From Monosiga brevicollis MX1 (lineage: Eukaryota; Opisthokonta; Choanoflagellata; Craspedida; Salpingoecidae): a stretch of 28,792 bases of DNA. Shown piece after piece: positions 129 through 27,300 of this stretch (within the stretch, counting starts at the first letter, position 1; every line of letters starts with the position of its first letter). The stretch lies in the NCBI RefSeq assembly GCF_000002865.3, contig NW_001865048.1, positions 981,574-1,010,365 on the forward strand. The letters run 5' to 3'. The position numbers and the translations under genes were made by a program. Under the pieces are notes generated by a model. It had not been told where the DNA came from. It saw only the letters and a program-made list of their open reading frames with translations, and did no database searches.

Positions 129-1985
129 CTACCCCGTGGACGAATAGGGAATGAATGTCAAGGCCAAGTACCAGCAGTCTGAACATGCGCCGGCACCAAT
201 ACCTGGCTGAGTGAAGGGGCTGCCTTTGAGCATGGAGGCAGTGTCGACACCCGAGTCGGCAAAGGCAGAAAACTGGATGGAAGCCGCAAGGTCCTCACTC
301 AAGCTGGCCGAGGGCAGGTTGAGCAGGGGCTCTTTCTTGTTGGGCAGCACGTTTTGCGCTCCGGCTTCGCTCATCGGTGAGTCGGCGTGCTCAAGGTCGT
401 CCCCATGCGAGTGGCTCTGAGGCTTTGGGTGAGAGATTTGACCGGACGTGCATAAAGCCTTGTGCTGAACAAACTCATCTGAGTTTTTGAACATGAGATG
501 GCAGTCTTCACATTTTGTAACGCTGCGCTTGCTGCGGCGCTCATGGGACTTGAGATGGGCTTTGAGGCTTGAAGATACGGAAAAGGATCGCGAACACTGA
601 AAGCATAAGCAAGCAAGAACATAGCATAGCCAGCGCAAGTGAGACCACGGCTTTCGACTGGTGGGATTTTGCAGCATCATGACGCAGGTCCTCACCAAGT
701 GACAATCATACGGCTTTTCACCCGTGTGACGGCGGATGTGCGATCGAAGGTTGGAAGACTAGCAGAGAGGCATGGGCGGGTGAAATTTATTGTCGGAGCA
801 AAGACCCAGCAGCTGTTGAGATCGCTCGCCACAAGCACAAACCTGAACAAAGCCTCGGCCGCAGATGTGACAAACATGATCTTTGATGTTGAGATGAATC
901 TTATTGTGTATCTAAACACGCATCGGGGGGCACGGGTGACAAGGCGTGAACACTCTACGTGCTGCTTGAGTATGGCACGGGTAGACGAATCCACCTCTTG
1001 GCCCTTTGATTTCCTGTCTCTTGTCTCGTGTGATCTTCGCGGCAAACTTACGCTCAGATGGCTGCGTCGGGCAAAGCGTTTGCCGCATTTCTAAAAAGAG
1101 GACAAAACGCCAAGCTGCTTGAGTTTTTTTGTGCTTGGTGCTTGACTGGAAACCGCAAACGAGTAAACTCACGTCACACTCGAAGCGCTTGACCTTGGTG
1201 TGGGACAAGTTGTGAATCTAGAGGCACAATTCCATTGAGTGCGCTTGATGAATGGAACGAGACAGTTTGGACGACTTGGCAAAGAGGCAGGCGCACACCT
1301 CCAGGGCGGAACGAGAGATGAAGTTGCGGCAGCAGATGGAGCAGTGGAATTCACCGACGGTGGTGGCTTTTAGGAGTTTGATGGCAGAGGTGGCCTGCCC
1401 CGGCGAGGCCTGCGGCGAGCTTTGTTGGGAAGATTCTCCGGAGCTTGAAGACTCAAGGGAGCTCCACGGACGCTTCTGATCACGAGAACGCAACAGCAAG
1501 GGGTGAGAGGCGGCGCCAGCAACGAACTTTGTGCAAAATCATCACCAGTTGCTCTGCAGTAGCGACAAGCGGAGTGAAAGTGATTGGCTGACCATGGGGG
1601 ACCGCGGCGTGGGTAGCTGCGCGCTACGCTGCATGCTCTGATATTGCCGCAGCTTTTCCCCAGTCCAAGGCGCCACGTTGACATGGGGGACAACAACAAC
1701 CAGCGGGTCCAATGGGTCCAGCTCGAGGTCATCAAGTGGAGGCTCGATGGGCCCAATCGGCAGCCAAACCTCGTCCAAAGGCAGGGGCGCACCGTGATTT
1801 GCGCTCACACAAGCTGCTGGAGCCGATGGAACAAGCCGAGAGGTGGCGGCATAGCTGGATATCTCGCTCAGGGGATCCAGGAGCTCCATGGTGGCCTCGT
1901 GCTGAGGCGCAAAGGGGTCGGTTGGGGCAGATTGCAGGAATGGGTTTCCGCGGGGCGGCGTGGTTTGGGAAGGAAACACGAACAT
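129..1985 (-). CDS. C2H2 zinc-finger protein, 7 exons, about 417 aa
   Basis: Probable nuclear DNA-binding regulator. Exons on the minus strand, in transcription order: 1985-1593, 1475-1299, 1217-1173, 1090-1052, 911-843, 758-696, 596-129. All junctions are phase 0 and the sum is 418 codons including the stop. The N-terminal 170 residues are Pro/Ser/acid-rich and disordered. Then come four C2H2 fingers: C176/C179/H192/H196, C204/C207/H220/H224, C232/C235/H248/H252 and C260/C263/H276/H280. A TGEKPY linker precedes finger 4. A fifth finger has C2HC spacing (C291/C294/H307/C311). The tail is Ser/acid-rich. Every intron after the second exon cuts inside a finger. The ATG at 1985 has an in-frame TAG three codons upstream, but that TAG also ends a possible acceptor (ccatag), so a 5' exon within about 2000-2225 is possible. 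The last exon could instead splice near 190 (CCAG/gtattg) to an acceptor near 130. The family is certain; the specific orthologue is not recognised. Confidence 0.85.
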
Positions 1986-3018: not shown

Positions 3019-5933
3019 ATGGACGCCATGATCAAGGAACGGAGTCGCCTCGTCAATGCGCGTCTGCGCGATGAACACAACCATGAATCCGGCTGGAAGA
3101 TGGCCCGCACCCCTTCCGACGAGGATTTGTGGAAACGCATCCAGAAACAGAACGACGATGCCATCGCTCAGGTTGGTGGCGCGCTTGCATTTAGTTGGTG
3201 GGCAGCGAATGCAGAGGCAGGGCTTCGGTGACCATCAGGCTGGTTAGGGCTGGCGTTGGTGCTGTATACTCTGTTCATGGATCGCATGACGTGCTTCTTT
3301 TGTACCGGTGCTTATGCCATGTCGTTCACAGCAAATCCAAGCTGATTCAGCCCCGGTCGAGGCCGGAGCCATCGAGACTGGCGAGGGCTATTCTCAGGTC
3401 GAATCCTCTTCTTGCTCGCATGCACTTCGTCCGTCGCCCTGCCTATGCCGACTCACTCTTCTTCTTCTTTTTCCGATCTGGCTTCCGGTAGGCTGACTTT
3501 TTGGCCTTGCTGAGTGGCGCAGCAGCGCCAGCACTCTCAGAGGACGATGAATCTGCCAGCATGGACACGAGCGCCGACGCTTCACCAGCCCCAGCACCAC
3601 CAGCCCAAGCGGGGAATCGACCCGTGCGCGCCGATTGGACTTTTGACCGGGCCTCATACAAGCCTGCGTTGGCTATGGACCCCGCTGCCCGTGCCCTCAA
3701 ACTTCGCCAAACCATGGCCAAAAGCGTACGCACCACTACCACCCAGTCCACGTCTGACACCCCCACCCCATTGGCTCACCTGCCCGGTCGCGACTCTTGT
3801 CCAATCACCTGTCTTGTCCCAACAGCGCCGGCGTGGGCATGCTGGCTCCAAACGAACGATCTTGCACAGTCGTGCCGTGGATGATGCCGACGTGAATCTG
3901 AGTCTTCAAGCGGGAGAGGTGCGTCCAACTCGACCGTTTCAAAAGGCATCACGCGATCGCGTACACTCACACACTTTCTTTGAAAAACTCTGCCTAGGTG
4001 TTGACCAAGGCCAAGGTCACGCGCAGTCCTCTGGGCTCACGTGCGGAAAGCCGCGCTGAGAGCGAGGGTCAGGCATCCTTTGATTCCGCCCTCTCAGACA
4101 GCGGTGGCTTGCGCCGGGTGGGCAATAACCGCCCTGGCATGTTCTTCCCCGAGCCAAACGAGGCATCTGCCTATGATCGCCGTTTCTCCGTGGATCTGAA
4201 CGAAGCGAGTCCGGACGATGATGAGACCACCGCCAAGCTTGAGCGAGCACTCAATCGCACCGACTCGATGCGCAGTCACGGTAGCGAAACGGGTCGCCCG
4301 CTCCCCTCAACTCGACCAGACCTTGATACGCTAGTGGAAGATGAGGACGACGATGGCCTGCCCAGCATCCATACCCCGCCCCCAACCGATGAGGTCGAGC
4401 CAAACTCCTCGGTCAGCATCAGTCAATATGATCGGGACTTCCGCGTCGCCTCCAGTGAGGCTTTGACAGAGGATTTGACTGAGGGTGCTGACGACGTATT
4501 TATTGCCGAAAGCGCGGCGAACACGGAAGAATGTGGGGCGACGTCCACGGAGGCCGCCGAGGGCACCGTCGTCATGCGCCGTGCCTCCTTTGCCATGGCA
4601 GCTCCAGGACGGCGCACCTCCTACGTGGGCCTGGTCCCTGCCGTCACCGTACAAGAACCGTCCAAGAGCCCCGTGCGTTCGGACACCGCTGCGAGCCACC
4701 CGTACCAGCCCACCCACAAGGATGAACCTCGGGCAGCTGCCCCGACACCCCCTCTGCTCAGGCGGCGCTCCAACAGCAACCCTGAGCGCATGCAAGGCAT
4801 TCTTAAGGTTTCCCTGCAAGCTCAGCAGAGCCTTGAGGTGAGCTGCGTGAAGTGGCCCATTGATGCGATTCGCTGCCCAGTCATTCAACACGTGCACCAC
4901 GAGAATGCTATGATGCTCGTCCATTCACCCTGCTTTGCACCTCCTGGCGTTGTGTACTTTTGGTTAGGACGAACGTCAGAACCGGTCATGCACACCACCA
5001 CCACCCCTTGAACGCCGCCACTCGGGCTCTTTGGATACCGCGTTGGACGCATTGGATGATGAAGATGAGGCGGGTCAGTCAAAGTGTTTTCGTTTCAAAT
5101 GTCAAATCCAAAGTTGCCGTTCCTTGCTTTGTTTTGCTTTATATTGCTTTGCATGCTATGGGCTTGTTTTTTTGGTTTTGCTTTGTTTTTGGTTTTTGGT
5201 CTCTTTTCCAATGTCCGGCAGCCGGGGCGGCTCGTGGGATCTCGTGGGATCTTGTCAATGTCCACTCATATCCTTGAACGGGCTTTCGATGCATGCGACA
5301 GTTACGGGCGTGGCCCCAACTCTGGTGCGCAAGGGCACCATCACCAAGGGCATCAAGGCTCACAAGCATCGCAAGCGTGGTGGTGTGCGTGCCGCTGGGT
5401 CCCGGTCGCCACCCCAAGCCAACGTGGTGCCGACCAAAGCTCGAGCCGGGGCTGCCACCTTGGCGGATACGCCTCAGGCCATGGAAACACAGATGAGCGA
5501 TGCTATTGCGGCAGAATCCAGCACTGAGGTGCCGACATGGAAGCGCGAGGCTTTGCGCCGACGCTCGGCTCGGCTGTCTAGCCGCCGCCAAAAATCGTCC
5601 AGCACTGAGCCTGAACCCAACTCGTCCGAAAACGAGCTCGCATCGGCACTTGAGCGCATTCGCCGGACTGGAAGTTTCAAGAAGACCAAGCCCTCGTCCA
5701 GTTCCGTTGGTACATCGGGACCAGCGACGATTCCTGAAGATCGGATCGCCTCGCATTCACCTGCTGCCGCTGCCACCTCGTCTGGGCGCCGCTCGCCTCG
5801 TGGCTCAGTGACGCTGCAGAATGAGTGGAATCGCGACTTTTCACAGGCAGAGTTGGATGCCATGCCACCTTGGAAGCGTGAGTTTGTGCTGCGCAAGCGC
5901 AGCTCGGCTCGGTTGCTGGATCCAACGTCTTAG
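3019..5933 (+). CDS. WKR(E)-motif protein, taperin/phostensin-like motifs, 707 aa
   Basis: Exons: 3019-3171, 3332-3397, 3492-3725, 3826-3918, 3998-4837, 4968-5073, 5302-5933. Phases are consistent and total 708 codons with the stop (TAG at 5931). The protein is mostly low-complexity, rich in Ser, Glu, Asp, Arg and Pro, with no globular domain I recognise. Two short basic motifs stand out: WKREALRRRSARL at W577 and PPWKREFVLRKRSSARLL at W688, ending five residues before the C-terminus. A looser LWKRIQKQND sits at W38. PxWKRE followed by basic helices is known from animal taperin, phostensin and related actin/PP1-associated proteins, so a cytoskeletal scaffold role is inferred. The exon 2 donor (CAG/GTCGAA) is weak, so this boundary is the least certain. 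The first exon has a good GATGG start context after a pyrimidine tract. Repeated RRxS sites (RRAS, RRTS, RRRS) look like AGC-kinase targets. Confidence 0.75.
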
Positions 5934-6466
5934 GGCTGAGTGAATTGTGTGTTGGCGGTTCGCGCGCGCCGCCTCTCAGTGTGGCCGTCCGCCCCTGTGT
6001 GTCCGTCTGGTCGCCAGCACGCGTTTGCGACTTGTTTTTTGTCCATATTCATGCTCTCTTCATTCTAGCAACCTATCCTAAACAAACTGTGTTCTCGAGC
6101 AGGGCTTTTTACCCAAGAAGCGCTGGTCGTCGTTGTCGTTGTCGTGACTGCTGTTTTCTATCGACAGTGTCCCGGTTTTTATGTTGTTTCGGTTTGCGGT
6201 CGCTGCTGGGCACAGCACCAACGTATGTCAGGTTTACGAAACATGAGTTTTTTTGGAGTGTAAGTGACCTCAATCAAGTGAGTGAGCGAAGCCTTTTCTT
6301 TCATCTATCAAAATCAATTTCACGAGTCAGAGGGAGTGGAGGTATGAACCAGCGCTTGTTCCGCTGCTCAGGGAAAACGCGGGCCGGAAGGCAAAGAGGC
6401 TGTAACACCGGCACGGCACCATTGAGGCGCAGCTTGATGCAAGATGGGGACGTGCCAGTTGCCTCT
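5934..6466. other. Convergent intergenic region
   Basis: This lies between the stop of the WKR-motif gene (plus) and the stop of the membrane-protein gene (minus), so it holds both 3' UTRs. It is T-rich in places (6020-6060, 6170-6255). The open frame at 5945-6646 is Cys/Arg/Phe-rich with no family resemblance and runs antisense into the membrane gene's last exons, so I do not call it. No clear AATAAA is seen for either gene. Confidence 0.5.
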
Positions 6467-7799
6467 TTACTGAGCCTTGGCCTTTTTGCCTTCGATGGCG
6501 GCCTTGACCTGATGTTGGGGAATGAACCGATGTGTCAAGTGCCAATGCAGGTCATGAGCGTTGCCATGATGATGACATGGGCTGGTGCGGTGCGACATCG
6601 TGTGCGTGTATTAACGGCACCACAAAGGCGTTTGCAAGGCCCATGACGGAAAAGAGACGTACAATGTGGCGCTCGTGGGAGCGGATGACGCGCTCCAGAA
6701 AGAATTGGCCGTTCCAGTAGAAGGTGATAATGACCACCCAAACGGCATAGCGGGCAATATGGGGTTCGACCAATGGGCGAGCTGAGTATTCCAGGCGATC
6801 CGGAATGGTCGGGTCCTCATAGCGCTTGACGGCCTCGACATAGTTGTGGTAGGTCAGCCACGCGTGCACGAGGCAGCCTGTTGATCAATCACGAGGAGGC
6901 GGAGAGGTCGGGTGGTAATGAGCCGCCAGATTGAGGGCAGGCCTGGGTGCATTGGCTATGGCTTATGTGCTTTTCAAACGTGTGGTGGATGTCCGAGCCC
7001 AGATTTTGTACATACCAGGGGCGCGCACCCAGAGCTGAATGTAGTTGTTGTAGTACTTCTCATCCAGCTTGCTAATCCAACCCAGCTTGATCATGACCAG
7101 CATCATGTAATCGAGGCCACCTAGGGAGCAAATGGAAAGCAGCGAATGAGGCGCGTTGGTGACAAGGGGGTTCGCGCGCTGGTGCAGTCGATCGGCAACC
7201 ACAAAAGTTTTGCTGATCCGATGCGGGGTCGCCCTTTTACCTGGTAAACCGCTAGCATAAAAGGCGCCGTGACCAAGGAGGTGACCGGGGGCCAAGAGGT
7301 AGGCGATGGGAAGCATGACGACCACCATAACGACGTGGTGCACCTAGCGGGACGGGCAGGTGAGATCTTGATGTATCTGGTGTCGACGTGGACTGCAAAA
7401 GTGGTGGCGCTGGCATCAAGAGGCATGGGGCGAGGAGAGAGCAGGACAGACCCAGTCGATGAAATCCAGAGGCTGGTAAAAGGCAATGTGGTACAAGTGA
7501 AGGGCATAGATGGCCATCACGCCGCGGGTATTGCAGGGGCCAAGGAATGCAACGCTGGGATCGCTGTAGGTGGCGATGATATCGGGCAGGTGCTCGAAGA
7601 CGACGTAGGCGTTGATGATGACGTGGAGGGAGAAGTAGCGGGTGGCGCTGTTTTTCTCGGGGAACCACTTGATGCGGACGAGGATGAAATCGAGAACAAA
7701 AATTGCCACAAACCACATGAGCGCATACTGGACATCGCCCATGAGGTCAAGCGGCACGCCCGTGTCATCCGTGGTGATGTTTTCGATGGTGTACTTCAT
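6467..7799 (-). CDS. Multi-pass membrane protein, TLC-like, 270 aa
   Basis: Exons on the minus strand: 7799-7452, 7343-7241, 7120-7016, 6877-6663, 6508-6467. Phases fit and total 271 codons with the stop. The ATG lies in a strong context (GCCGCCATGA). About six hydrophobic segments are visible: near residues 25-45, 55-80, 90-110, 117-140, 152-170 and 215-240. A LHLYHI segment is followed closely by DWVHHVV, a paired-His arrangement reminiscent of TLC-domain proteins (His-His at the start of a helix); ELO elongases have a related HxxHH, here degenerate. The last exon encodes only 13 residues ending KKAKAQ, which fits a KxKxx dilysine ER-retrieval signal, so ER membrane location is inferred. 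Substrate and reaction are unknown. The frame stays open upstream to about 8267 with in-frame ATGs, but that stretch is not convincing coding sequence. I am confident it is a gene and much less sure of the family. Confidence 0.8.
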
Positions 7800-9183: not shown

Positions 9184-10631
9184 ATGAAGGTGTGTACTCT
9201 TATCCCCTTGTCCTTGTCTCTCTCTCTCCTTCCTTCTCTCTCTCTTTGGCGATGGCAGCGCCATCCTGGTGGACCGTGAGGGAGGGGAGAGGGTGGTCGA
9301 CCTGGGCGTGATGGTTGGCGGTTTGTTTGGCTTGGTTGTGTGGAGGGTCTTGGTTGGATTGCCAGCTGCCTGCCGGGTCGCGTGGAATGCAAATGCACAC
9401 GCTGTCTGCCTAGCTCAGGCTCGTCAGGCCAGGGCCCTCTGAGCGGTGCACCATGTCCTCGCTCTCGTCCTGTGCGTTGATTGGCGGGGGCATGGATGCA
9501 AGTACAAGGCGGCAACCCGTTGACGATAGCAGGAATCTCAGCAGAAGGGGCTCGCACAATCACGTTGAATCTTTTTTTAGTTTGAGTTCTAGACGAGCGT
9601 ATCATGTCGATCGTCTTTTTTTTTTCTTTTTTCTGTCGTGGATGCATGTTCGATGGCAGTGTCACTCAGTCAAGTCGCGCCATGTTTGAGTGAACCGTGC
9701 GTGTCTTCTCACTTTTTTCTTCTCTGTGTAGTTGAACATTTCGTACCCGCCCAACGGTACGCAGAAGACGTACGACTTCGAGAACGAGGCCGCTGTGCGC
9801 CCCTTCTACGAGAAGCGCATCTCGGCTGAGGTCCCCGCTGACTCCCTCGGCGATGACTGGAAGGGCTACGTCCTCCGCATCTCCGGCGGTAACGACAAGC
9901 AGGGCTTCCCCATGCGTCAGGGTGTCCTCACCAACCGCCGCGTGAAGCTCCTCATGTCCGAGGGCCACTCTGGCTACCGCCCCCGCCGTTCTGGCGAGCG
10001 CAAGAAGAAGTCTGCTCGTGGTTGCATTGTCGACTCCAACCTGAGCGTCATCGCCTGCATCATTGTCCAGAAGGGCGAGAAGGAGATTGAGGGCCTGACC
10101 GGTGCGTCTTTGCTTGTGGTTCCACTTGCTCAACGTGTTTTCTCCGATGCAGATGCTTTGAGCCAAACCATCGCTATGCTTTTCTGGTGTCTGTGTGTTA
10201 TGGACTGGACCTTTTGAGTGTACTCAACTGTGCTGCTTTTTGCCCTTGGAACTTTGCTCTGCATAGATGTCACCCGCCCTCGTCGCCTCGGACCCAAGCG
10301 CGCCAACAACATCCGCAAGCTGTTCAACCTGACCAAGGAGGACGATGTGCGCAAGTACGTCATCCGCCGCAAGATCGAGAAGGACGGCAAGGTTGTCAAC
10401 ACCAAGGCCCCCAAGATCCAGCGTCTGATCACCCCTGAGCGTCTGCAGCGCAAGCGTTGCGAGCTCGCCCAGAAGCGTGCCAACCGCGCCCACCAGAACC
10501 AGCTCAAGGCCGAGTACTCTGAGATGCTCGCCAAGCTGCAGAAGGAGCGCGCTGATGCTCGCGCCGCCCTGCACCAGAAGCGTCGTATCTCGTCGCGCAA
10601 GTCGGAGAGCAAGTCGGAGAGCAAGGCGTAA
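9184..10631 (+). CDS. RPS6: 40S ribosomal protein eS6
   Basis: Component of the small ribosomal subunit. Exons: 9184-9189 (only ATG AAG), 9732-10101, 10267-10631. This gives 246 aa, against about 249 in animals. The N-terminus after splicing is [11 protein letters not shown], the family signature. The conserved block [18 protein letters not shown] follows the second intron. The basic C-terminal helix ends with [18 protein letters not shown], retaining the RRxSS cluster that S6 kinase phosphorylates in animals. The first intron is 542 bp, the longest in the window apart from uncertain cases, and starts after codon 2. Codon use is strongly biased to C-ending codons, as expected for a highly expressed gene. 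An AATAAA lies 64 bp past the stop. Confidence 0.97.
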
Positions 10632-14964: not shown

Positions 14965-17900
14965 ATGGCTGCCACCGGCTTGGGCTTTGCCGAGACGCGC
15001 CAGGAGCTGAGGCTGCTGCGCAGCCTCTTGTGCTGTTCACTCTGGTACGTTGGAAACATGTGTATTTGGCATCAGCATCAACAACGGCCTCCACGCACCC
15101 GCATACTCAACTCGACTGGTGGTTGACCTTTAGCAACTCTGGCCGGATCGAGAAGCCGTTCTATCTGGTGACGTGTGGTCATTACTTTTGCAAGTACGGC
15201 CTGGTCCTCTCGTCTCCTTGCGCCATCATTGCCGTCTGCCTCACATGAATGTATCATCTGTATCCTGTGTTGCAGAGAATGCATTGTTAGCAAGCTTCAA
15301 GAGCAAAGCTCTTGTCCCGAATGTCACCTGCCCGCGGTGCCCAAGGACTTGCGCTCGGAAGACAAGGTCATCTTTTGCCCTCACCTTGATATTCTGTTGA
15401 CATGCTGAGTTGGCGCCCTTTCTTACCTGCTTGTACGTGCTTCCACTCCAAAGGTGGACGCAGCCGCTCGCTGCTGCTTGGCTCTGGAACAAACGCTTGA
15501 CAAGCTCACCAGTCAGCCCCGGGGCCTCCTGGAACGCACCAACTTACCTCTGGGTCTCGGCTTTACACGCTCCAAGCGCTCACTCAGCCAGCAGTGCCCT
15601 GCATCCATCGAGCCCATGCTTGATCAGCCCTCCCTTGAATGCTCGTCCATCGATGATCTGAGCCTTCCGACGATAGACCTCCAGCCCCGAAAGGGCCGCT
15701 CTCGGCCGGCGTCGGCTCTTCGCTCTCAGTCTAAACCGCAGCCACAGATTTTGCCCGCCGCCGCGAGCAATTCGGTGTCAAGCAATTCGGTGTCAAAGGA
15801 TGTGACTTCCTTCCAGCAGGCTTCGCCAGCAGCCAAAAATGTCAATGACTCCCAGACCTCACCACTGCCAGACGCCAACGGCAACACGAGCATTCAGGCA
15901 GAGACGGAACCAAAGCGGGCCAAGCGGGCCAAGCCGGCCAAACGCACCAAGCGCACACGATCTGCCACCATCAATGACCCAACATCAGCAGCAGACGGCA
16001 AAATCAAGTCCGGGGTCAAGTGGCGTCGATCCAACTCCCTCAAGACTGCTACGCCTGACGCGGCCGCGGACAGCCCAGTCTCTGACGATGTGCAAAGTTC
16101 AGCAGATGACAAGAGTGAGATTATTGACATCAAGCCAATTATTCCCGACGCTTCTGACATTCACACTCCAAATGCCAGTCGTCAAGGCGCCAAGCCACGC
16201 TCAGCTCGCAAGGTCCGTTGCGCCTGTTTGCTATCCTCCTCGGACCCCGATCTAGATCGGACCGGAATCAAGTCGCCTTGACACACGCACACGCTTGCTC
16301 CTGGCTCATTGGCGTGCTCTGTGTCTTGTTGTGGGTCTGCAATGGTGTTAGTCGCCCAAGACACATGTCAATTCCGTCGGCGAATCGCTGCTTCAGTGTG
16401 CCTGCAAGCGACCGTACGTGCTCTGCATGGTGGCGACCTCCGTTCCGGTCACCCGACATTGCACTCATACAATTGGGGGGCTCTTTTTTCTGCTCGCGAC
16501 TTGCCGTCAGAACGCCAAAGATGGAAGTCATCACCAAGCTCTTGGAAGAGGGCGCGCACGTCAACCATCGCGACTATAATGGTTGGAGCCCATTGGTATG
16601 TCCTGACCCACTTACCCATTGCCGAGCCCCCTCCTCCCCCTGACCCTTTGGTTGGCTCACCCGTTTCCATGCACCGCAGCACGAGGCCGTGGCGCTGGGC
16701 CATCTTGCCGTCGTGCAACTACTGCTCACTCACAACGCCGATCCAAACCTACAAAGCCACAGTCGCACCACCCCGCTCCACGACGCAGTCATCAATGATG
16801 ACGTAGCACTCGTACAGGTTAGTCATGGGCACGTGCAGAGTTCTCCTGCTTGCCACTGGTTGCCAGCCGTCGCGCGGTGTTCGTGCCTGCTATCTCCTCA
16901 TGTGTCACGTGTGGTGCTAAAACAAAACACCCAACATGTAGGCTTTGATCCAAGCGGGGGGCAACCCGTATCTGACCACGGATCGTGGTCAGAGTGCCCT
17001 TGACCTTGCTCGCAGCGAAGGTGTCAAGTCTGTGTTGCAATCAGCCCCCCCGCCCCCCGCCCCCGGTACCGCCACCAAGGCCGCCGTGGGCAAGGACGGC
17101 ATGAGTCCCATCCGCTTTATTGCCATCTCGGGGCTGGACGCCGACAGCAAGGTGTGTGCCATATCATGGAAAGCGCCATAAAAGGAACCGGGTTGCTGCC
17201 TGGCCATTTCAGTGGCTGATAAACTTGAATGTGACTTGGTGATGATAGGCATTAGTAGAGGAACTATGCCAACAGTTTGAGTTGGAGCTATGCCCTGAAG
17301 TCAACGAGTCTGGTACGCTAATAACATATTTTTTTTTGTTTCTCTGTGACACAGTATATGGCACCTCACAATTGGTTGTTTGGGGTGGGCAACACCACTT
17401 TGCATCGCAGTGGACGTGGTGATTATGGAAGCCGACGAGAAGGGCCTTGTGAAGCGCACCTTGAAGTATCTCGCCGCTTTGCTCTGCGGTTGCTGGATCG
17501 TCAATGCCACATGTGCGTTTTGTTCCAATCTTGCTTTTTTTTTTTTTAAAGGTCTGAGCACGAGGTTTTCGGCATGCTGTGACTTGATTGGTACTCATCT
17601 GGTCCATGTGCAGACTTGCGCGAGTGTCTGGAAGCACAACGACTTTTACCGTGCGAGGCATTTGAGGTCAAGGGGTGTTCTTCCACCTCGCATGTGGTGC
17701 GTCGGCAGTAAATACACTCGAGACATGCGGCGAGACCACCGTGTGACGTGTCATTTATTGGCGTTGTCCATCAATGCGTGTCTGTGGAAGCATCATGCGC
17801 CGCGCCAACTCACCTCATGGCTTCAATTTTCCCCTTTGCATTTTCCCCTTTGTAATTCTGCCAAATATGTTTGTCCTAGGATGTGCCACAGTTGGCGCGA

Positions 17901-18262
17901 ATCTCACGGATGAGCAACGTCAAGCCACTTTTTGACAGCGTGTCTTTTTTCATCGAGGGATCGACTCGCCGCACTTCCGGCACAGCGGCAGGCACACCTC
18001 CCAACGCCGATCTTCGCCGCCTCATCGAGCTTGGTGGTGGCAAGGTCAGCGTCCAAATTCCTGGCATGGGGTTCAAAAAAAAGCTCAACTCACGGATCCT
18101 GGTCTTGTGTAGGTGGTCACGCGCCGAAGCGAGTCGACCGTGGTGTTGCGAAGCTCGATGCCACGACACCCGAGGCGCTCGCAATCTTCAGGCAATTGCT
18201 TCACGCCAGCGGATCTACTCGATTGCATTGCCAATCAAGAGTTTCTACCATCTCTTTCCTAA
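14965..18262 (+). CDS. BARD1: BARD1-like RING / ankyrin / tandem-BRCT protein, 682 aa
   Basis: In animals BARD1 pairs with BRCA1 as a nuclear ubiquitin ligase that marks H2A and steers homologous recombination. Exons: 14965-15044, 15134-15193, 15276-15366, 15454-16212, 16352-16413, 16511-16595, 16680-16817, 16942-17151, 17249-17312, 17411-17512, 17614-17696, 17880-18044, 18113-18262. The sum is 683 codons in one frame. An upstream in-frame TAG supports the start. RING ligands: C24, C27, C41, H43, C46, C49, C60, C63. Residues 78-330 form a disordered linker with a basic NLS-like KRAKRAKPAKRTKR. Four ankyrin units (about 338-460) include GWSPLHEA and TTPLHDA: W376, E381 and D414 match the spacing of the human H4K20me0-reading residues, but A384 replaces the Asn. 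Two BRCTs follow: BRCT1 with GCW (W545) and pocket-type S488, T533, K535; BRCT2 with GGGK, rather short, ending at PADLLDCIANQEFLPSL. The intron 3 donor (AAG/GTCATC) is weak; other joins are well supported. Confidence 0.92.
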
Positions 18263-18578
18263 ATGCCTACCGACCAGGGCGCTAGCTTGCGAGTATTGCT
18301 GGCTGCCCCTCTCAGAACCAAATCATTCACTACTGCAGAAGGAAAACGTTGTCGTTGATTCAGTGCTGCAGTTCCTTTCTTTTACTTGTTGTCCTCTTCG
18401 CTTGCTGTTCATGGCCAGCTAACCACGGCGCCTCTAGCATAATCGACCTATCTTGCCAGTTTCACGAGCCTCTTGCCACGTTTTTTCCAACGCCCGCGAT
18501 CCCCACCCCCCTCTCAACCTCTCGTGCCTTCTCATGATCATATGGGGGTTGTTGATGTTTTTTTTTCAGAACAACAAC

Positions 18579-18606
18579 AAAAAAAAAAAAAAAAAAAAAA
18601 AAAAAA
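18579..18606. repeat. A28 homopolymer run
   Basis: An uninterrupted 28-bp A run preceded by ACAACAACAA, 317 bp downstream of the BARD1-like stop. It resembles a retroposed poly(A) tail, but no retroposon body or target-site duplication is evident upstream. Confidence 0.85.
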
Positions 18607-18799
18607 TGAAAAGCGATCGTACAACATAAAATGCGAAAAAAGCGAAACAGTTGCAGATATAGTAATATGTGTAGTTGTAATTAATGCAGCAGTTTCTGAT
18701 GTTATTGTCGCTGCCTTTGAACTGTGACTCCTCTTCCTTGCTTCTGCTGCTTGCTGTGTGCTCCTCCATCATCCTCCATCGCGGTGACCGCTTCTCCTT

Positions 18800-18835
18800 G
18801 CTGCTGCTGCTTCTGCTGCTGCTGCTGCTGCTGCT
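18800..18835. repeat. (CTG)n trinucleotide tract
   Basis: About eleven CTG units with one CTT interruption. The complement encodes poly-Gln in one frame. The surroundings are not convincingly coding. Confidence 0.85.
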
Positions 18836-19259
18836 TCTCCTTGCTGCCGTCGCTGCTGGGGGCGGCTGTTACTTGTTTGGTTGGGGTTGGGGGAGGGCGG
18901 GGGTGTTGCGGACGGTTTCGCCTTGTCCCTGGAGCTGCCTTTGGCGGATCGGAGTTTGATAGTTTGTGGTCCAGAGCCGCGCTCGCTTCCTTGGAGGGGC
19001 TCAGCTTCCGGCCTGTGGGCCGAGCGGGATCAAACCTGTGGGTGCAGTGACTGCCTCTGCAAAACCACACTGGCAAAGTTGAGCACGAGCAATGGCGGCG
19101 AGCCTGTGGTGTCTGGATACTCTGATCGACAACATCTCAAGCCTGCTGGGGAGGATTCCTGTTTAGCTCAAAACCGCACTCGAATCGACACGGCTGCGTC
19201 CGATACGCTGGACTGCAGGTTGAAACTCGTCGTGTTTGCCACGGCTTGACCGTCCAGCC

Positions 19260-22200
19260 ATGGAGCATATCACGGGACGCCTGCCCAAAATGGAAGGCTG
19301 GACGCTCTTCTTTGTGCGTTTCAAATCCACGCTCACGGCCCTCGATCAAACGCGTGTTTGGTTGCTGCTGTGCCTTTGCTCCACAGCGCCCTCTTGCGAT
19401 GCAAACCTTGCGCACTGACGGGTTCATCTTTCTTGATCTGGCCCCCAATAGATGGTAACGGGTGGCTGGGCGCTGATGGGGTGGCTGTGCTTTGCGTCCT
19501 TCTTTGGCTTTTGGGCGGCCAGTAAACTTTTCATTTTGCTCGTGGTCACCTTGATCAGGTCAGCCACCCTGTACATTGTCCAAGACGTGCGCCTTGCAGG
19601 CATCTCTTCTGGCGCATTCTTACCCAACACCAATGATCCTCTTCCTTCGTGCGTGATGTAGTGCCCTTGGTATCCTCTGGCACTTGTTTCTCCAGCATGG
19701 GCAGCAACACTCTGCTAAGCAACCCACTTCCAAATTAGCAAGCCCCTCTACATTTCGCCTCGGCTTGTCGTTTGTGCGTGCCAGGACGGTTTAAAGGCAG
19801 CCCGGCCCATTCTCCACCGTGCTTGCCTTTCTCTTGGCTCATGTCACCCGTACATCGGCTTGCCTTGCCCCTCTTACAGCCCGAGGTGCATCCCGTGCCC
19901 CGCGTGGACAAACGCGTGAGCGGCGCCTTGGTGATTGATGAGAAGATCCAAACGGTTTGTTCATCGCATAGTAATTTGTTTTGGCTCTGTCCGGGTCGGC
20001 GTCCATCTCTGCCCGCTTCATCATGTTCCGCTCCCTAGGTCATCTCCCTGCTGCTGCGCGACTACCTCGAGTGGTGGTTCAAGTCTTCGAGTGACGATCA
20101 AGACTTTGTGATTGAATGCGAGCGGCTGATCCACAACATTCTCATCGAGCTTTCGGTTCGCTGCAAGGAGATTGACGTGACGGAGTTTGTGACGACAACC
20201 GTCGTTGACGTGCTCGTGAAGCATATTCGTTTGTACCGTGCCACCCAAGCCGAGGTGGCGAAGAAGTTCAAGGCCGTGGCCCCATCCAACGAGGCCGAGG
20301 CCATCAAGCTCGAGGTTTGTCCCATGCCACCGTAACCGGGGTGGTCGACCGGCGTTTTGCCCGTCATCACAAAGCTCAGTTCTGTATTGATGCTTGAGAT
20401 GCAGAATGATCGAGCCGAGTTTTTCGTGCAGAAGGCCTTTAACAAACAGCAACTCAAGGGGATTTGCACCAAACCTGAGAACGAGCTGAGTTCGTTGTTG
20501 CTCTTTTGCTTCCGCCGGCTTCTTGCACAAAAATGGTTGCTCAAATCTTTGCTCATGGCTCAATGTGCGCGGCGGGACGGTGATGGGTCGAGCGCAGACT
20601 ACCTTCGTGACGTGTCTGAAATGCTGCTGTACCTTCTTCTTCCCGAATCGGACTTTCGGGCCTTGCCCATGCGCTATGTTCTGCGGGTCAGTTGCCTCAA
20701 ATCATGCCTCCTCAAGCTGCGAGTGGCCCAAGACCACTGCAAAAGCAAAACGTCTTGGCCCAGGGTTGACTGGATTCAACGTTCTTGCTGATGACGCATG
20801 GGCGTGGCCGTTGTATGGTACTTTTTCTGGGGAGCAGGAAATTTTGACAACGTGCACGTTTGCACCCACTTGGGCCATGATATCAGATGGCGACTACATC
20901 AATTCGTTTCCTGCTTGCTTACTGGACGAAAACTTGCTCTCCTATCAAGCCATTTTGGACGTGGCTAACATCTCCTCGGACGTGCAAGAGATCAAGTGGA
21001 TGCTGCAGCGTGTTGAAGAAGCCATTCAGGCCACGGTCCAGTCTCAAGACGAGGTACGAGCGTGATACTATTGGTTTTGGTTATTGATACAGACAGCTGA
21101 ACGAACAATCTCTGGGCCAGAGAGGAGGTGTTGGCAGGACAAAAGCTCCTCATCCGTCTGAATATGAGACGGTAACTGATTGAGCATCCTCACGAGCTTC
21201 TCCGCGATGCGATCCGGTTGCTACACAGGGGACGGTGCGCCAATCCTATCTTCACCAGATGGAGGCTCTTTTGTTTGCTCAGGTCCGGGTTCACGTCCCG
21301 ACCGTGCTCCCCGTCGCCCTTGCGACCAGCCTGAGGCCAAAAAAACCAACCCACTCACTGCGTTTTCCTGTTAGGCTCAAGTGGCAAACCGATATGCTGT
21401 TTTGACGGGACGGCCACGGACACAATCAGCGCCCAGCACCAACTCGCAGCAGGAGATTCTACCACTCAAGTTTATCCTTCGCAACTCTGTTGCCATTGTC
21501 TACTTTGAAGAATTCATGCTGGCCAAAGAGCAGAGCCACCTGCTTGCATTTTGGCGTGAGGTTAGCAACTGGCGACGCAAAACCTTTGAAGCGCGAAGTC
21601 GCATGGCCAAGGTGAGTCGGCCCCCCTCTTCTCCTTCGATCTGGATGAAGGCCGGGATCTGTTTGCGTCGCCTAATGTTTGTTTTTCAAGCAGGAGACGC
21701 TTCCCGTTGAACGGATGCAGATGGCCGAGCGACGCATCAAGGAGGACGCGCTGCGCATCTTTTTCCTGGTGAGCACCTCATTTGGGTCATACTTGTGGCC
21801 GATCATTTCGACCCTTCCTACTTTGGTGGCTCCATCCTGCCTCATTTTGCGCTCTGGACTTGCTCCTTCATAGTACTTGACTGACGATGCAGAGCAGCAC
21901 ATTGCCATGCCGCTGGACTTGGTCGCAGAGACCCACGAGCTCATCTGTCAGTCCACAGCCGAGGTCACAGCCTTTGACCAAATTCACGCCACGGTGCGCT
22001 CATACCTCTCAAGGCTCCGTATGCCTCGTCAAAGGTTTCTTCCCGTGCTCTCCTTCTCATACGGCCTTTTACTTGGATGACATTGCCAGGTGCAAGAGCT
22101 GTTACATAGTGACTTTTATCCCGAATTCCTCAAGTCTGACGCTTATGATCGATGCCTGTACACGCTCAAATTTGACGATCAGTTGGATCCCGCTCAAGCT

Positions 22201-23579
22201 TCCATTCCAACCGCCACCGAGCCCGGTCCCGCAGGCAAGAGGCCTGCCCTGCATGAATGCTATCTCGCTGCTCATCTGGGGGCTCCGCATTGCGTTTCGC
22301 CGTTCTCGTGGCCTTGTGGGCCACTTCGCTTCCAACGACGCCTTGTCTTACACAGCACGCAACTTGTTCTTTATGCTTCTGACAGGTGCAGCACCAGAGG
22401 CGAGCGGGCCCGTGCTGCAGCAGCCGGTCTCGGCGGCAAGTGCGACAGATGGCAAAGACATCAACCTGGAGGAGCATGAATACGTGGGCTGGTGGAGCGC
22501 CGAGTTATTGGACCACGAGGAAGGCGAAGATGAGTCGCGCAAGTCGTTTACCGTCTACGTACTCAAGATTCGCTTCCAATCGGAGACCACCGGGGAGATT
22601 CGCGAATGGATTTGCAAGCGGCGCTACAGCGAGTTTGACAACTTTACCAACCGGGTACGTGGCTTTTCTTGTGCGCGAGGCGATTTCCTTAGGTGCATGC
22701 GATGCGAATTAACCCACCTTCACCTCAAATTGTGGTCAACTTGCCGCCGTGGCCTTTTGCAGCTCAAGGGGCTTTATCCCGATCTCAAGAGCCGCTTGAA
22801 CTTGCCGAAAAAGAAGCTTATGGGTCGCAAAAACTCGGAGTTTGTGGAGAAACGCCAGTCCGGACTGCGCACATGGCTCAAGGAGCTGCTCAGCGTAGAC
22901 ACCCTGAAAAAACGTAAAGAGCTGCAAAAGGTCAGCACTTGCTCCCTGCAAGGTCCACCTCATCAAAGCCATCGAGTGCCAAGCTGAACTCGAACACGTA
23001 CGCTGACACCGTCATATCACGGCAACTGGTTTTACATGCAGGAAATTGCCATTTTTTTGCGCGAGGGTACCTTTGAAAAAACCAACGTGTCTTTTGCGTC
23101 CAAAGTTCTTGGTCGCCACCGAGTATGGCTCTTCGCGCTCCCTTGATCACATCAGTCGTATGCGAGCGGTATGGCAATATGAAAACCTCACCTGACGCGT
23201 GTGCTTGACACTATTTTTGCGTCCTATGTGCTAGACGACAAGCATCCGCTCTGAGGAGGAGCACGACTCGGATGAGCAAAATTTGACGGAAGTACGAGCG
23301 TCGTGTCCATGTTATCACCTTATTTTGAACCAATCTGATATCGCATCCTTTGACATGGTGCTTGTGCTGACACTGGCTGTGTTCCTGTTGCCCACTCGAA
23401 ACTTGTGCACCCCTATGCAATGTAGAGCTTGCAAAAGGACAACCTGTTGAGCATTTTGCTGCGCGTGGCAGAGGTGGTGTTTGAGCTCAATGCCAATCCG
23501 GTACGCATTGAAAACCAAAGTCACGAGGGGTGCCGCAACTCATATCTTGCTCTTGTTCCTCATCATGGCCTGACTGCCG

Positions 23580-24313: not shown

Positions 24314-27300
24314 TTATAGGAGGGGCCCGCTGCGGTCGTTTGTTTCGGCCTTTTTCAACCCGCGTTTGCTAAATGACTGAATCGATCCCAACAGTGCGCC
24401 ACGTCCCGGGTCACCGCCAGCTGACGGTGTCGGGGCTGGAGGAGGTGGAGCAGGGGCCGATGTTGGAGCCGAGGCCGGTACGGGAGGTGCCGGAGCTGGT
24501 GCTGGTGCCGGGGGAGCCGGAGCCGCCGAAGGTGCAACAGGAGCTGAAGCCGACGCCGAAGTCGAGGTCGAGGCCGTGGAAGTTGACACCATATCAGACT
24601 ACAAAAACGTGCGTTTGCATGTGCATGGCAGTGAGGGGCGCGTTGCACGATGAAACAAGGGGCGAGTGGGAAAACAGGGAAAATGCGAGTGGTGAGTCGC
24701 TGGGGTCAGCAAAAGGGGATCACATCTCAGACCTGTGGACGAGGGTTGGAGACGGAGGGGGCCGGTGCCACGAAACTACCCAGTTCATGCGTCTGAAAGA
24801 TTGGCGGTGAGACAAGTCGCATTCCAAAGCACCGGGGACGCGAGCGAACATCGATGTGTACATCGTACCGAGCCATTGTTGGTGCGCACTTGGCGGCTGA
24901 GTTCTCTGTCGCGCTGGCGACTACGTTTTTCTTCGTCACGCACTTGCTCGTCCTGACGCTTGCGTGCCATGAGCTGAGAAAAGCTGGGGGTGAGAAGCAC
25001 ATTTGAAAACAAACACCAAACAAATTGGGAGTTGCCGCCAAGGTGCCACGTCTCACCTGAGCTTGTTGCTCACGCAAGACCTGGTGAGCGCTCGTTTGTG
25101 CTGACGCCAAGGCGTCGCGTACACGTGCGCTCAACTGTGCCATAAATAACAAGAGCATCAAGGTACCCGAGGACGGGAACAAGGTCAGAAGAGCCAGAGT
25201 CGAAAAGGAAGCTGGCACACTCATAGTCGGCAGGAAGGAAGCGGACAGGGCCCAGGACCCACCTTAAAGCTGCCACGCTCAACAGCCCCGAGATTGACGT
25301 CCTTGAAGTAGGGCATGGCCAAAAGTTGGGAGACTGTGGGAAGGCTACGCACACCACGGGGCGAGAGCAGCAGTTCCAGGATTTCCTTATGGGGTCCACT
25401 CGGTAGGGCCTCATCGAGGGTCAATTGACCGAGCGGGCGGCCAAACACCATCTATTCGGTCCAAGGAAGCCATGATGGCGTTCAGACTCGGTGCTGACTG
25501 CCTGGGCCTTGATGCGTGCAGGCAAGGCGTGCACAAGGGGTGGGTGGGCAAGTGCGCACCTCAAAGAGCACATGCCCGAAGCAGTAGACATCCCGGCGCT
25601 CAAGGGTATTGACTTTTTTGAGTTGCTTGACGTGGCCGTCGTAAAAGCCAGAAATGCCTGCTCATATGGAAAATCCATGAGGTCAGTGCAAAAGGGAGAT
25701 GGGGTGCAACGGTTCATTTACCTAGGATGCCTGTTTCAATATCCGTCAGGTGCACGAGCTGATCGCTCACCACCATTATGTTACCTGTGAAAAAAACGAG
25801 AGCATGAGTGGACCAGGTGCATTAGCATGGATGAATAGGAAGAAGCAAGCCGGCCATGGGTGGTGGTGGTGGTGGTGTACGCAGGGCGCCAACCAGAATG
25901 AATGTGGCCAAGAGGGATGTTTTTGGCGTGACAGAAAGATATGGCCTCTAGAATTTGGCGTCCGTAGAGCTTTGTACGGCGCTCGTCAAAGGGTTTGTAT
26001 TTGGTGCAACAGTACTTTTTCACGAAGCTTTCCTATCAATAGGGTGAACAGCAGCAGAATAGGGTGAAACGGGAGCTGACCCATCTGGGCAGGTGCGGAA
26101 AGCGTGATGCTGCATGGGGTCGTTTGGCCACTGTTCCTCCAAAGCTTGGGCCGGATCTAGTGGAGCGCGAGCGTCAAAGGAGGGCCAACCTGTGGGTTTT
26201 TGTTTTTGCAAACATGATCACGGATGGAGCCTTTGGGATAGAGGTTGCGGACGACGACGGCGTTGAGACCCGAGGCCTCATGGATGCCTCCGAAAATGGC
26301 AGGGGCAATGAAGGGATGTGATATGCCAGCAAGATATTTGAGGGCGCTGGCGAGGGCACCCGCCTCAACGTGGGGATGGCCCCCGACGCGTGTCTGGGTG
26401 AAAGTAGGCGTACGGAAAACCAGACCCAAAGGCGTGAGGCAGCGCTGTCTAGGGCTGGGCACGCGGGTGATGGGGAGGGGGAGCGACGCACCCATGCAAG
26501 GTACTTGGGGCCCTGGCTATCCTGGGTGGCATAGCCTTGGGTCTGGACGAGAACGAATTCCTTGGCGACTCGCCAACCCACGAGTGGGGTATCTTGTTGG
26601 CGCAGCCAGTTGGGATTGCTGCGAAAAAAGAGGCTAACGCCGCGCATATTCTCATCTGCGATTCAGGATTGGTTTGGGTGAGGACGTAGGGCGAGAGATT
26701 GCATGGTGCGGGTGGCAGCTGTAGGGGTAGGAACACAGATAGGATGCCCTGCCTTTGCTGGAATGGCATCTACCTGCAAGGTGATCGGAGACGAGGGTGG
26801 GCAGGAGAAATTGGCGGACAGCCATGTCATGGCGAAGGATGGGATGGCGGGCAAGGGTTTGCAGCATGCCCTGCACGGAAGAGTTATGGAAGATGCACGG
26901 AGGAGGGGAGGAAATTAAATCGGGATAGTTGGACGCGTGCGCAAGGGCTCTGAGGCTTTGAGCAGAGTATTCAGGATGAAAGGGGCTAGCTGCACGGGGC
27001 AGGTACGTACTTCCAGGGCGCGCTTGCGTTCCTCAATGACCGCGGCGGTCTTGTTTCCCATGAAGCGTTTGGGGGGAAGAGGGATATCGACGTTGGTGAG
27101 AGCAGTCACGTGGGCAGCCAGGGCGACGAAATCAGAATAGCGGTGCGGCGCCTGATAACTTTCGCCGAGGACGCCAACAGTGGTTTCGATGAGGTAGACC
27201 TATGCGATGGCACGTCCGAACATGACAAGAAGGGGGAGGGAAGGGGTTGCCCACAAGGCAGGAGGCACGGATCGGGCGGGAGCCGTGAGCCGTGAGCAGC

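What the first reader, a model, noticed from the sequence alone, without database searches (positions are those of the whole stretch)
14965..18262. Complete BARD1-type protein outside animals with histone-reader and phosphopeptide-pocket residues
The hand-spliced 682-aa product has RING, four ankyrin units and two BRCTs in BARD1 order. The GWxPLHEA Trp/Glu and the PLHD Asp keep the exact +5 and +38 spacing I recall for human BARD1 W462/E467/D500 (H4K20me0 reading), but the third pocket residue (N470 equivalent) is Ala384. BRCT1 keeps Ser488 and Thr533/Lys535 at phosphopeptide positions. This suggests that coupling of ubiquitin ligation to replicated chromatin predates animals. The residue numbers for human BARD1 are from memory.
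Basis: partly seen in the sequence, partly recalled or inferred. Interest (0 to 1): 0.75.

Follow-up and report, generated by a model that had tools for sequence, protein, structure and literature searches.

The report
BARD1 gene in a choanoflagellate
The window carries a complete BARD1-like gene from a single-celled relative of animals, the choanoflagellate Monosiga; its ankyrin part keeps five of the six residues thought to hold unmethylated histone H4, but its BRCT end lacks the loop that human BARD1 uses to read ubiquitin-marked histone H2A.

Summary
A 13-exon model at 14965-18262 gives one 681-aa protein with RING, ankyrin domain and two BRCTs in BARD1 order. The genome is Monosiga brevicollis or a very close relative. 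The four best PDB matches of the RING part are BARD1 RINGs, over both flanking helices; a RING2-BMI1 chimera follows closely but covers less. Ankyrin-BRCT aligns collinearly with human BARD1. The H4-tail pocket is specific: E341, D372, W376, E381, D414 match human E429, D458, W462, E467, D500; N470 is Ala. Of 60 other ankyrin alignments from 30 loci of this genome that cover all six positions, none matches more than two. By spacing, the five are the K20 and H18 contacts of SLF1, the lost Asn the R17 contact. New here: of the H2AK15-ubiquitin motif R705, D712, Q715 only the Arg is kept; about 26 residues there are absent inside one exon. So H4K20me0 reading may be older than H2AK15ub reading. 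A BRCA1 partner was not found, by searches that are not splice-aware. BARD1 before animals was already in print; the pocket and missing loop were not seen in my ten searches.

The parts
14965..18262 (+). whole coding span of the BARD1 orthologue, 13 exons, 681 aa
   Evidence: spliced; domains
14965..15044 (+). exon 1: N-terminal helix and first RING cysteines (C24, part of C27)
15134..15193 (+). exon 2: RING core (C41, H43, C46)
15276..15366 (+). exon 3: rest of RING (C49, C60, C63)
15454..16212 (+). exon 4: helix after RING, then linker with a Lys/Arg-rich run at residues 231-246
   Evidence: open for 253 codons, other two frames hold 3 and 13 stops
16352..16413 (+). exon 5: start of ankyrin unit 1, carries E341 (human E429)
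16511..16595 (+). exon 6: ankyrin units 1-2, carries D372 and W376 (human D458, W462)
16680..16817 (+). exon 7: ankyrin units 2-3, carries E381, A384, D414 (human E467, N470, D500)
16942..17151 (+). exon 8: ankyrin units 3-4, linker, start of BRCT1 with S488 (human S575)
17249..17312 (+). exon 9: BRCT1
17411..17512 (+). exon 10: BRCT1, carries T533 and K535 (human T617, K619)
17614..17693 (+). exon 11: end of BRCT1 and linker; followed by a donor GTGGTG that looks weak
17880..18044 (+). exon 12: start of BRCT2
18113..18262 (+). exon 13: end of BRCT2 and stop; keeps R636 (human R705), lacks about 26 residues around human D712 and Q715

Best explanation
This is the Monosiga orthologue of BARD1. 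Most likely it pairs through its RING and flanking helices with a BRCA1-type RING to make an E3 ligase for the H2A C-terminal tail (inferred). Its ankyrin groove most likely holds the H4 tail and prefers unmethylated K20, which marks newly replicated chromatin (pocket residues shown, binding inferred). Its BRCT1 keeps the residues of the phosphopeptide pocket (shown). It most likely does not read H2AK15 ubiquitin by the human BUDR motif, because D712 and Q715 have no conserved counterpart (shown); only the Arg of that motif is kept. Shown: domain order, RING ligands, five of six pocket residues, missing loop. Inferred: partner, ligase activity, histone binding, role in recombination after replication.
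For: One frame through 13 exons with GT-AG introns. RING: the four best PDB matches among 177,635 sequences are BARD1 RINGs, aligned over residues 8-92 (best E 2.3e-8), BRCA1's RING E 0.003; eight zinc ligands. Ankyrin-BRCT: one collinear match to BARD1 7e8i_K, residues 335-639, E 1.1e-29; 101 identities in 324 aligned positions; 128 bits against at most 23.1 in 200 shuffles. Pocket: 5 of 6 against at most 2 of 6 in 60 other alignments. SLF1 K20me0 contacts E808, D838, E847 and H18 contacts W842, D881 fit the kept five by spacing (two of the spacings differ by one residue). BRCT: all matches with E below 0.005 are BRCA1 or BARD1 chains; S, G and TLK invariant among human BRCA1, human BARD1 and the window. 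Setting: SET8-like SET exons at C53:800295-800901, BRCA2 OB1 match at C37:197007, H2A genes with the Lys pair of K13/K15 and an H2A.X ending SQEF. No second copy: with the window's BRCT as query only the window scores below E 0.01.
Against: No BRCA1 candidate recognised, in exon-by-exon searches. The fifth RING match, a RING2-BMI1 chimera, has E 4.6e-8, close to BARD1's, though over residues 11-66 only. BRCT alone is a little closer to a BRCA1 chain (1l0b, 9.6e-11) than to BARD1 (2e-8). zf-RING_6 is below its cut-off. N470 is Ala; human K423, H426, R427, near DNA in structures, are H335, S338, V339. Human pocket residues and BRCT pocket residues are recalled, not read in a BARD1 paper. No expression data.
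Confidence: 0.72

Rival explanations
1. It is BARD1 by descent, but its ankyrin domain no longer reads H4K20me0 and serves as a scaffold or binds another partner.
For: N470 is Ala and the three finger-0 residues are changed; ankyrin similarity to human is no higher than that of another ankyrin frame of the genome.
Against: The five places that fit the K20 and H18 contacts are kept, two of which (E429, D500) match in 0 of 59 other alignments.
Confidence: 0.17
2. It works without BRCA1, as a homodimer or with another RING protein, because the species lacks BRCA1.
For: Human BRCA1 RING and BRCT and a recalled plant BRCA1 RING led to no gene recognised as BRCA1 among the hits examined.
Against: The same kind of search misses the window's own gene: human BARD1 BRCT finds no window frame at E 0.05 and the BRCA1 queries do not list the window. 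Five of 17 hits and eight of 15 hits were not examined. PMC3969565 dates BRCA1 to early eukaryotes (passage).
Confidence: 0.1
3. The model joins two neighbouring genes, a RING gene and an ankyrin-BRCT gene.
For: No transcript was available; the junction of exons 4 and 5 rests on one 139-nt intron.
Against: 139 nt leaves little room for an end and a new start; phases fit throughout; RING and ankyrin-BRCT each match BARD1 on their own.
Confidence: 0.03

Closest known systems
Animal BARD1 (PDB chains 7lyc_N, 7e8i_K, 8off_Ea, 7lyb_N)
   Same: RING with flanking helices, long linker, ankyrin domain, two BRCTs, five of six H4-pocket residues, Ser/Thr/Lys of the phosphopeptide pocket
   Different: Ala for N470; D712/Q715 region of the H2AK15ub motif missing; finger-0 residues changed; Val where human has the Trp after the RING (W91, number recalled)
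SLF1 and TONSL ankyrin domains
   Same: acidic pocket for H4K20me0 said to be conserved among SLF1, TONSL and BARD1 (PMC11551741, section 19)
   Different: SLF1 has its BRCT pair at the N-terminus and an Nse5-like end; TONSL has TPR, UBL and LRR parts (PMC9409234 legend)
BRCA1
   Same: RING at the start, tandem BRCT at the end; BRCT of the window is as near to BRCA1 as to BARD1
   Different: no ankyrin domain (recalled); its RING matches far less than BARD1's
Plant BARD1
   Same: RING and tandem BRCT (recalled)
   Different: no ankyrin domain (recalled, not tested here); plant TSK likewise lacks TONSL's ankyrin domain (PMC9409234, passage)

Membership tests
BARD1 | N-terminal C3HC4 RING with a helix on each side for pairing with BRCA1 | tested here: met
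   four best PDB matches are BARD1 RINGs over residues 8-92, a RING2-BMI1 chimera close behind over 11-66; eight ligands; zf-RING_6 below cut-off
BARD1 | ankyrin domain between linker and BRCTs | tested here: met
BARD1 | tandem C-terminal BRCT with Ser, Thr, Lys of the phosphate pocket | tested here: met
   S488, T533, K535; human residues recalled
BARD1 | H4K20me0 pocket E429 D458 W462 E467 N470 D500 (list recalled, fits SLF1 by spacing) | tested here: met
   5 of 6 kept, N470 is Ala
BARD1 | BUDR motif R705 D712 Q715 for H2AK15ub | tested here: not met
   Arg kept; D712 in a gap or on Thr; Q715 in a gap in both. Known from human BARD1 (PMC8373961); whether it defines the family outside vertebrates was not tested
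BARD1 | forms a ligase with BRCA1 | tested here: inconclusive
   no BRCA1 recognised by searches that are not splice-aware
BARD1 | branches with animal BARD1 in a tree | not testable with these tools
   no collection of eukaryotic proteins other than PDB chains
H4K20me0 readers of ankyrin type (BARD1, TONSL, SLF1) | binding to the H4 tail, blocked by K20 methylation | not testable with these tools
   needs peptide or nucleosome binding

The most novel reading that the evidence does not exclude
Monosiga BARD1 would then be a living form of the older, replication-only sensor. Not excluded either: the loop was lost in Monosiga.
Probability: 0.35. Interest if true: 0.62.

Novelty: new member of a known kind. 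Interest (0 to 1): 0.42.

Why it matters
BRCA1-BARD1 steers homologous recombination by combining two chromatin signals, H4K20me0 and H2AK15ub. A choanoflagellate BARD1 that keeps the residues for the first and lacks the loop for the second lets the order in which the two were acquired be tested by binding assays, and offers a natural separation-of-function protein.

Tried and rejected
BRCA1 partner: human BRCA1 RING gave 17 hits at E up to 1; I looked at 12 (ten loci, one, one). By eye and recall several look like LONRF-, RNF10-, TRAF- and RING1-type genes; none was recognised as BRCA1. C52:191982, the one that looked most like BRCA1 by eye, has no BRCT match in 20 kb around it, but that test is insensitive, see below. 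C51:926116 looks by eye like Polycomb RING1. Human BRCA1 BRCT gave one hit, C32:631837, by eye a microcephalin-like gene. The plant RING query gave 15 hits; 7 had been looked at, 8 not. BRCT families gave 8 places (PF00533) and 1 place (PF16589), none of them the window, so these searches miss split domains.

Ankyrin similarity by score was rejected as evidence: another ankyrin frame scores 75.9 bits against 74.7. The SET search's best match, C40:165574 (E 1.3e-15), is by eye not SET8-like; the SET8-like call rests on C53 (three pieces, 44-57% identity). The 53BP1 Tudor search found nothing, and its controls rang nowhere either, so it says nothing. A scan of viral contigs found no relative. 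A PDB search with exon 2 alone found nothing. The 10 kb fetched as L065 were not scanned.

Full report
Gene and organism. The thirteen exons join at GT-AG borders into one frame of 681 residues and a stop. The twelve introns are 68-186 nt and richer in T than the exons (0.31 against 0.20). The window lies at C47:981574-1010365 of a 39.5-Mb genome of 57 contigs. A 47-residue piece of that genome's Unc18 gene matched PDB 2xhe_A with 46 of 46 aligned residues identical, and PMC3693963 (passages) names 2XHE as Monosiga brevicollis. The species is thus Monosiga brevicollis or a very close relative, a choanoflagellate, the sister group of animals (last point recalled).

Domains. Pfam finds RING, ankyrin and two BRCT matches over cut-off in the order of BARD1; zf-RING_6, the BARD1-type RING, reaches 24.4 of 35 bits. 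The four best PDB matches of residues 1-101 are BARD1 RINGs (best E 2.3e-8), aligned over about residues 8-92, so over both flanking helices. The fifth, a RING2-BMI1 chimera, has E 4.6e-8 but covers 11-66; BRCA1's RING has E 0.003. Zinc ligands are C24, C27, C41, H43, C46, C49, C60 and C63. The ankyrin-BRCT part matches human BARD1 as one collinear stretch, 335-639, E 1.1e-29; longer ankyrin proteins rank higher in that list by adding up many repeat matches. BRCT alone matches BRCA1 chain 1l0b best (9.6e-11) and BARD1 next (2e-8); all 25 matches with E below 0.005 are BRCA1 or BARD1 chains.

Pocket. The alignment to human BARD1 423-777 has 101 identities in 324 aligned positions. E429, D458, W462, E467 and D500 are kept as E341, D372, W376, E381 and D414; N470 is A384. 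In the SLF1-H4 crystal structure (PMC11551741, section 19 read) K20me0 is held by D838, E808 and E847, H18 by W842 and D881, and R17 by N850; the paper says the pocket is conserved among SLF1, TONSL and BARD1. Matching these to BARD1 by spacing is my inference: three of the five spacings from the Trp are equal and two differ by one residue. On that basis the K20 and H18 contacts are kept and the R17 contact is lost.

Control for the pocket. I took 30 ankyrin loci of the genome (226 Ank_2 matches reported, 150 of 1004 candidates scored). Aligned to the human ankyrin domain at E up to 1e-3 there are 137 alignments, 61 covering all six positions: 17 with no match, 42 with one, 1 with two, and the window's with five. 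Some of the 60 others repeat, because loci overlap or are near-copies. Single positions among 59 distinct ones: E429 0, D458 29, W462 5, E467 2, N470 7, D500 0. A motif count in the same loci agrees: W in 2 of 55, E in 1 of 55, both in 0 of 55. By plain score the window's ankyrin domain is not distinguished, so the pocket is the evidence, not the similarity.

BRCT and the missing loop. S575, T617 and K619 (recalled) are kept; S, G and the TLK motif are invariant among human BRCA1, human BARD1 and the window. The BUDR motif that binds H2AK15ub was mutated as R705A, D712A, Q715R in PMC8373961 (passages). R705 falls on R636. D712 falls in a gap in one alignment and on Thr in another; Q715 falls in a gap in both. 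About 26 residues are missing there. Human BRCA1 is also shorter than BARD1 at this place, by fewer columns. The stretch lies inside exon 13, an uninterrupted frame, so a wrong splice cannot explain it; intron 12 is only 68 nt and would shift the frame if kept.

Chromatin setting. SET8-like SET exons lie at C53:800295-800901, three pieces of 44, 52 and 57% identity; the best match by E-value, C40:165574, is by eye another SET type. A BRCA2 OB1 match lies at C37:197007. Three H2A genes keep the Lys pair of K13/K15; two have one Lys in the tail after KK118-119, and one, an H2A.X ending in SQEF, has two (positions by eye, numbering recalled). Human BRCA1-BARD1 ubiquitylates H2A K125/127/129 (PMC10639053, passages). 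53BP1 could not be judged.

Partner. No BRCA1 was recognised (see Tried and rejected). The searches read exon by exon and miss the window's own gene with foreign queries, so the partner question is open.

What is known. PMC3969565 (passages; figures not seen) surveyed 47 species, mentions Monosiga brevicollis in one of its trees, and dates BARD1 before the plant split, BRCA1 to early eukaryotes, 53BP1 to animals and RNF168 to Chordata. Against leaning on its absences: it reports BARD1 as lost in C. elegans, whereas the abstract of PMC6211623 (seen in the listing) describes the C. elegans orthologue BRD-1. A BARD1 outside animals is thus not new. BARD1 with choanoflagellate gave one review on other ligases, BARD1 and BRCA1 with Monosiga two papers. 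In the listings of ten literature searches (those were cut to 20 of 23, 15 of 42 and 12 of 167) I saw no paper on the H4K20me0 pocket or the BUDR loop in a choanoflagellate. The library holds open-licence papers only, so this is a weak negative. Plant TSK lacks TONSL's ankyrin domain (PMC9409234, passage).

Verdict. An orthologue of BARD1 with a well-kept H4K20me0 pocket and without the H2AK15ub loop. The loop may be younger than the pocket, or lost here; other early-branching BARD1 sequences, which these tools do not hold, would decide.

Noticed in passing
window 9732-10628 (+): Ribosomal protein S6e gene: PF01092 at 3.2e-51 in the frame 9732-10214; the frame 10218-10628 reads by eye like its C-terminal part but has no Pfam match.
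   Followed up: partly
window 20039-22984 (+): PXA (20039-20332) and PX (22433-22984) domain frames of a sorting-nexin-type gene; a further PX frame lies on the minus strand at 27001-27199.
   Followed up: partly
window 132-758 (-): C2H2 zinc-finger frame (PF00096, 6e-6).
   Followed up: no
window 18577-18606 and about 18797-18845: Long A run about 315 bases after the stop codon, and a CTG-rich run further on (by eye).
   Followed up: no
L056 about 4456-7192 (-), G000:C32: Gene that by eye looks like microcephalin, with a BRCT at the start and a BRCT pair at the end.
   Followed up: partly
L070, G000:C55:1461354-1461719 (-): H2A.X-type histone ending in SQEF.
   Followed up: no
L071, G000:C51:925300-927800: RING exon pair that by eye looks like Polycomb RING1.
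   Followed up: partly
window 15913-15960 (exon 4): Lys/Arg-rich run (residues 231-246) in the linker, possibly a nuclear signal or DNA-binding stretch.
   Followed up: no
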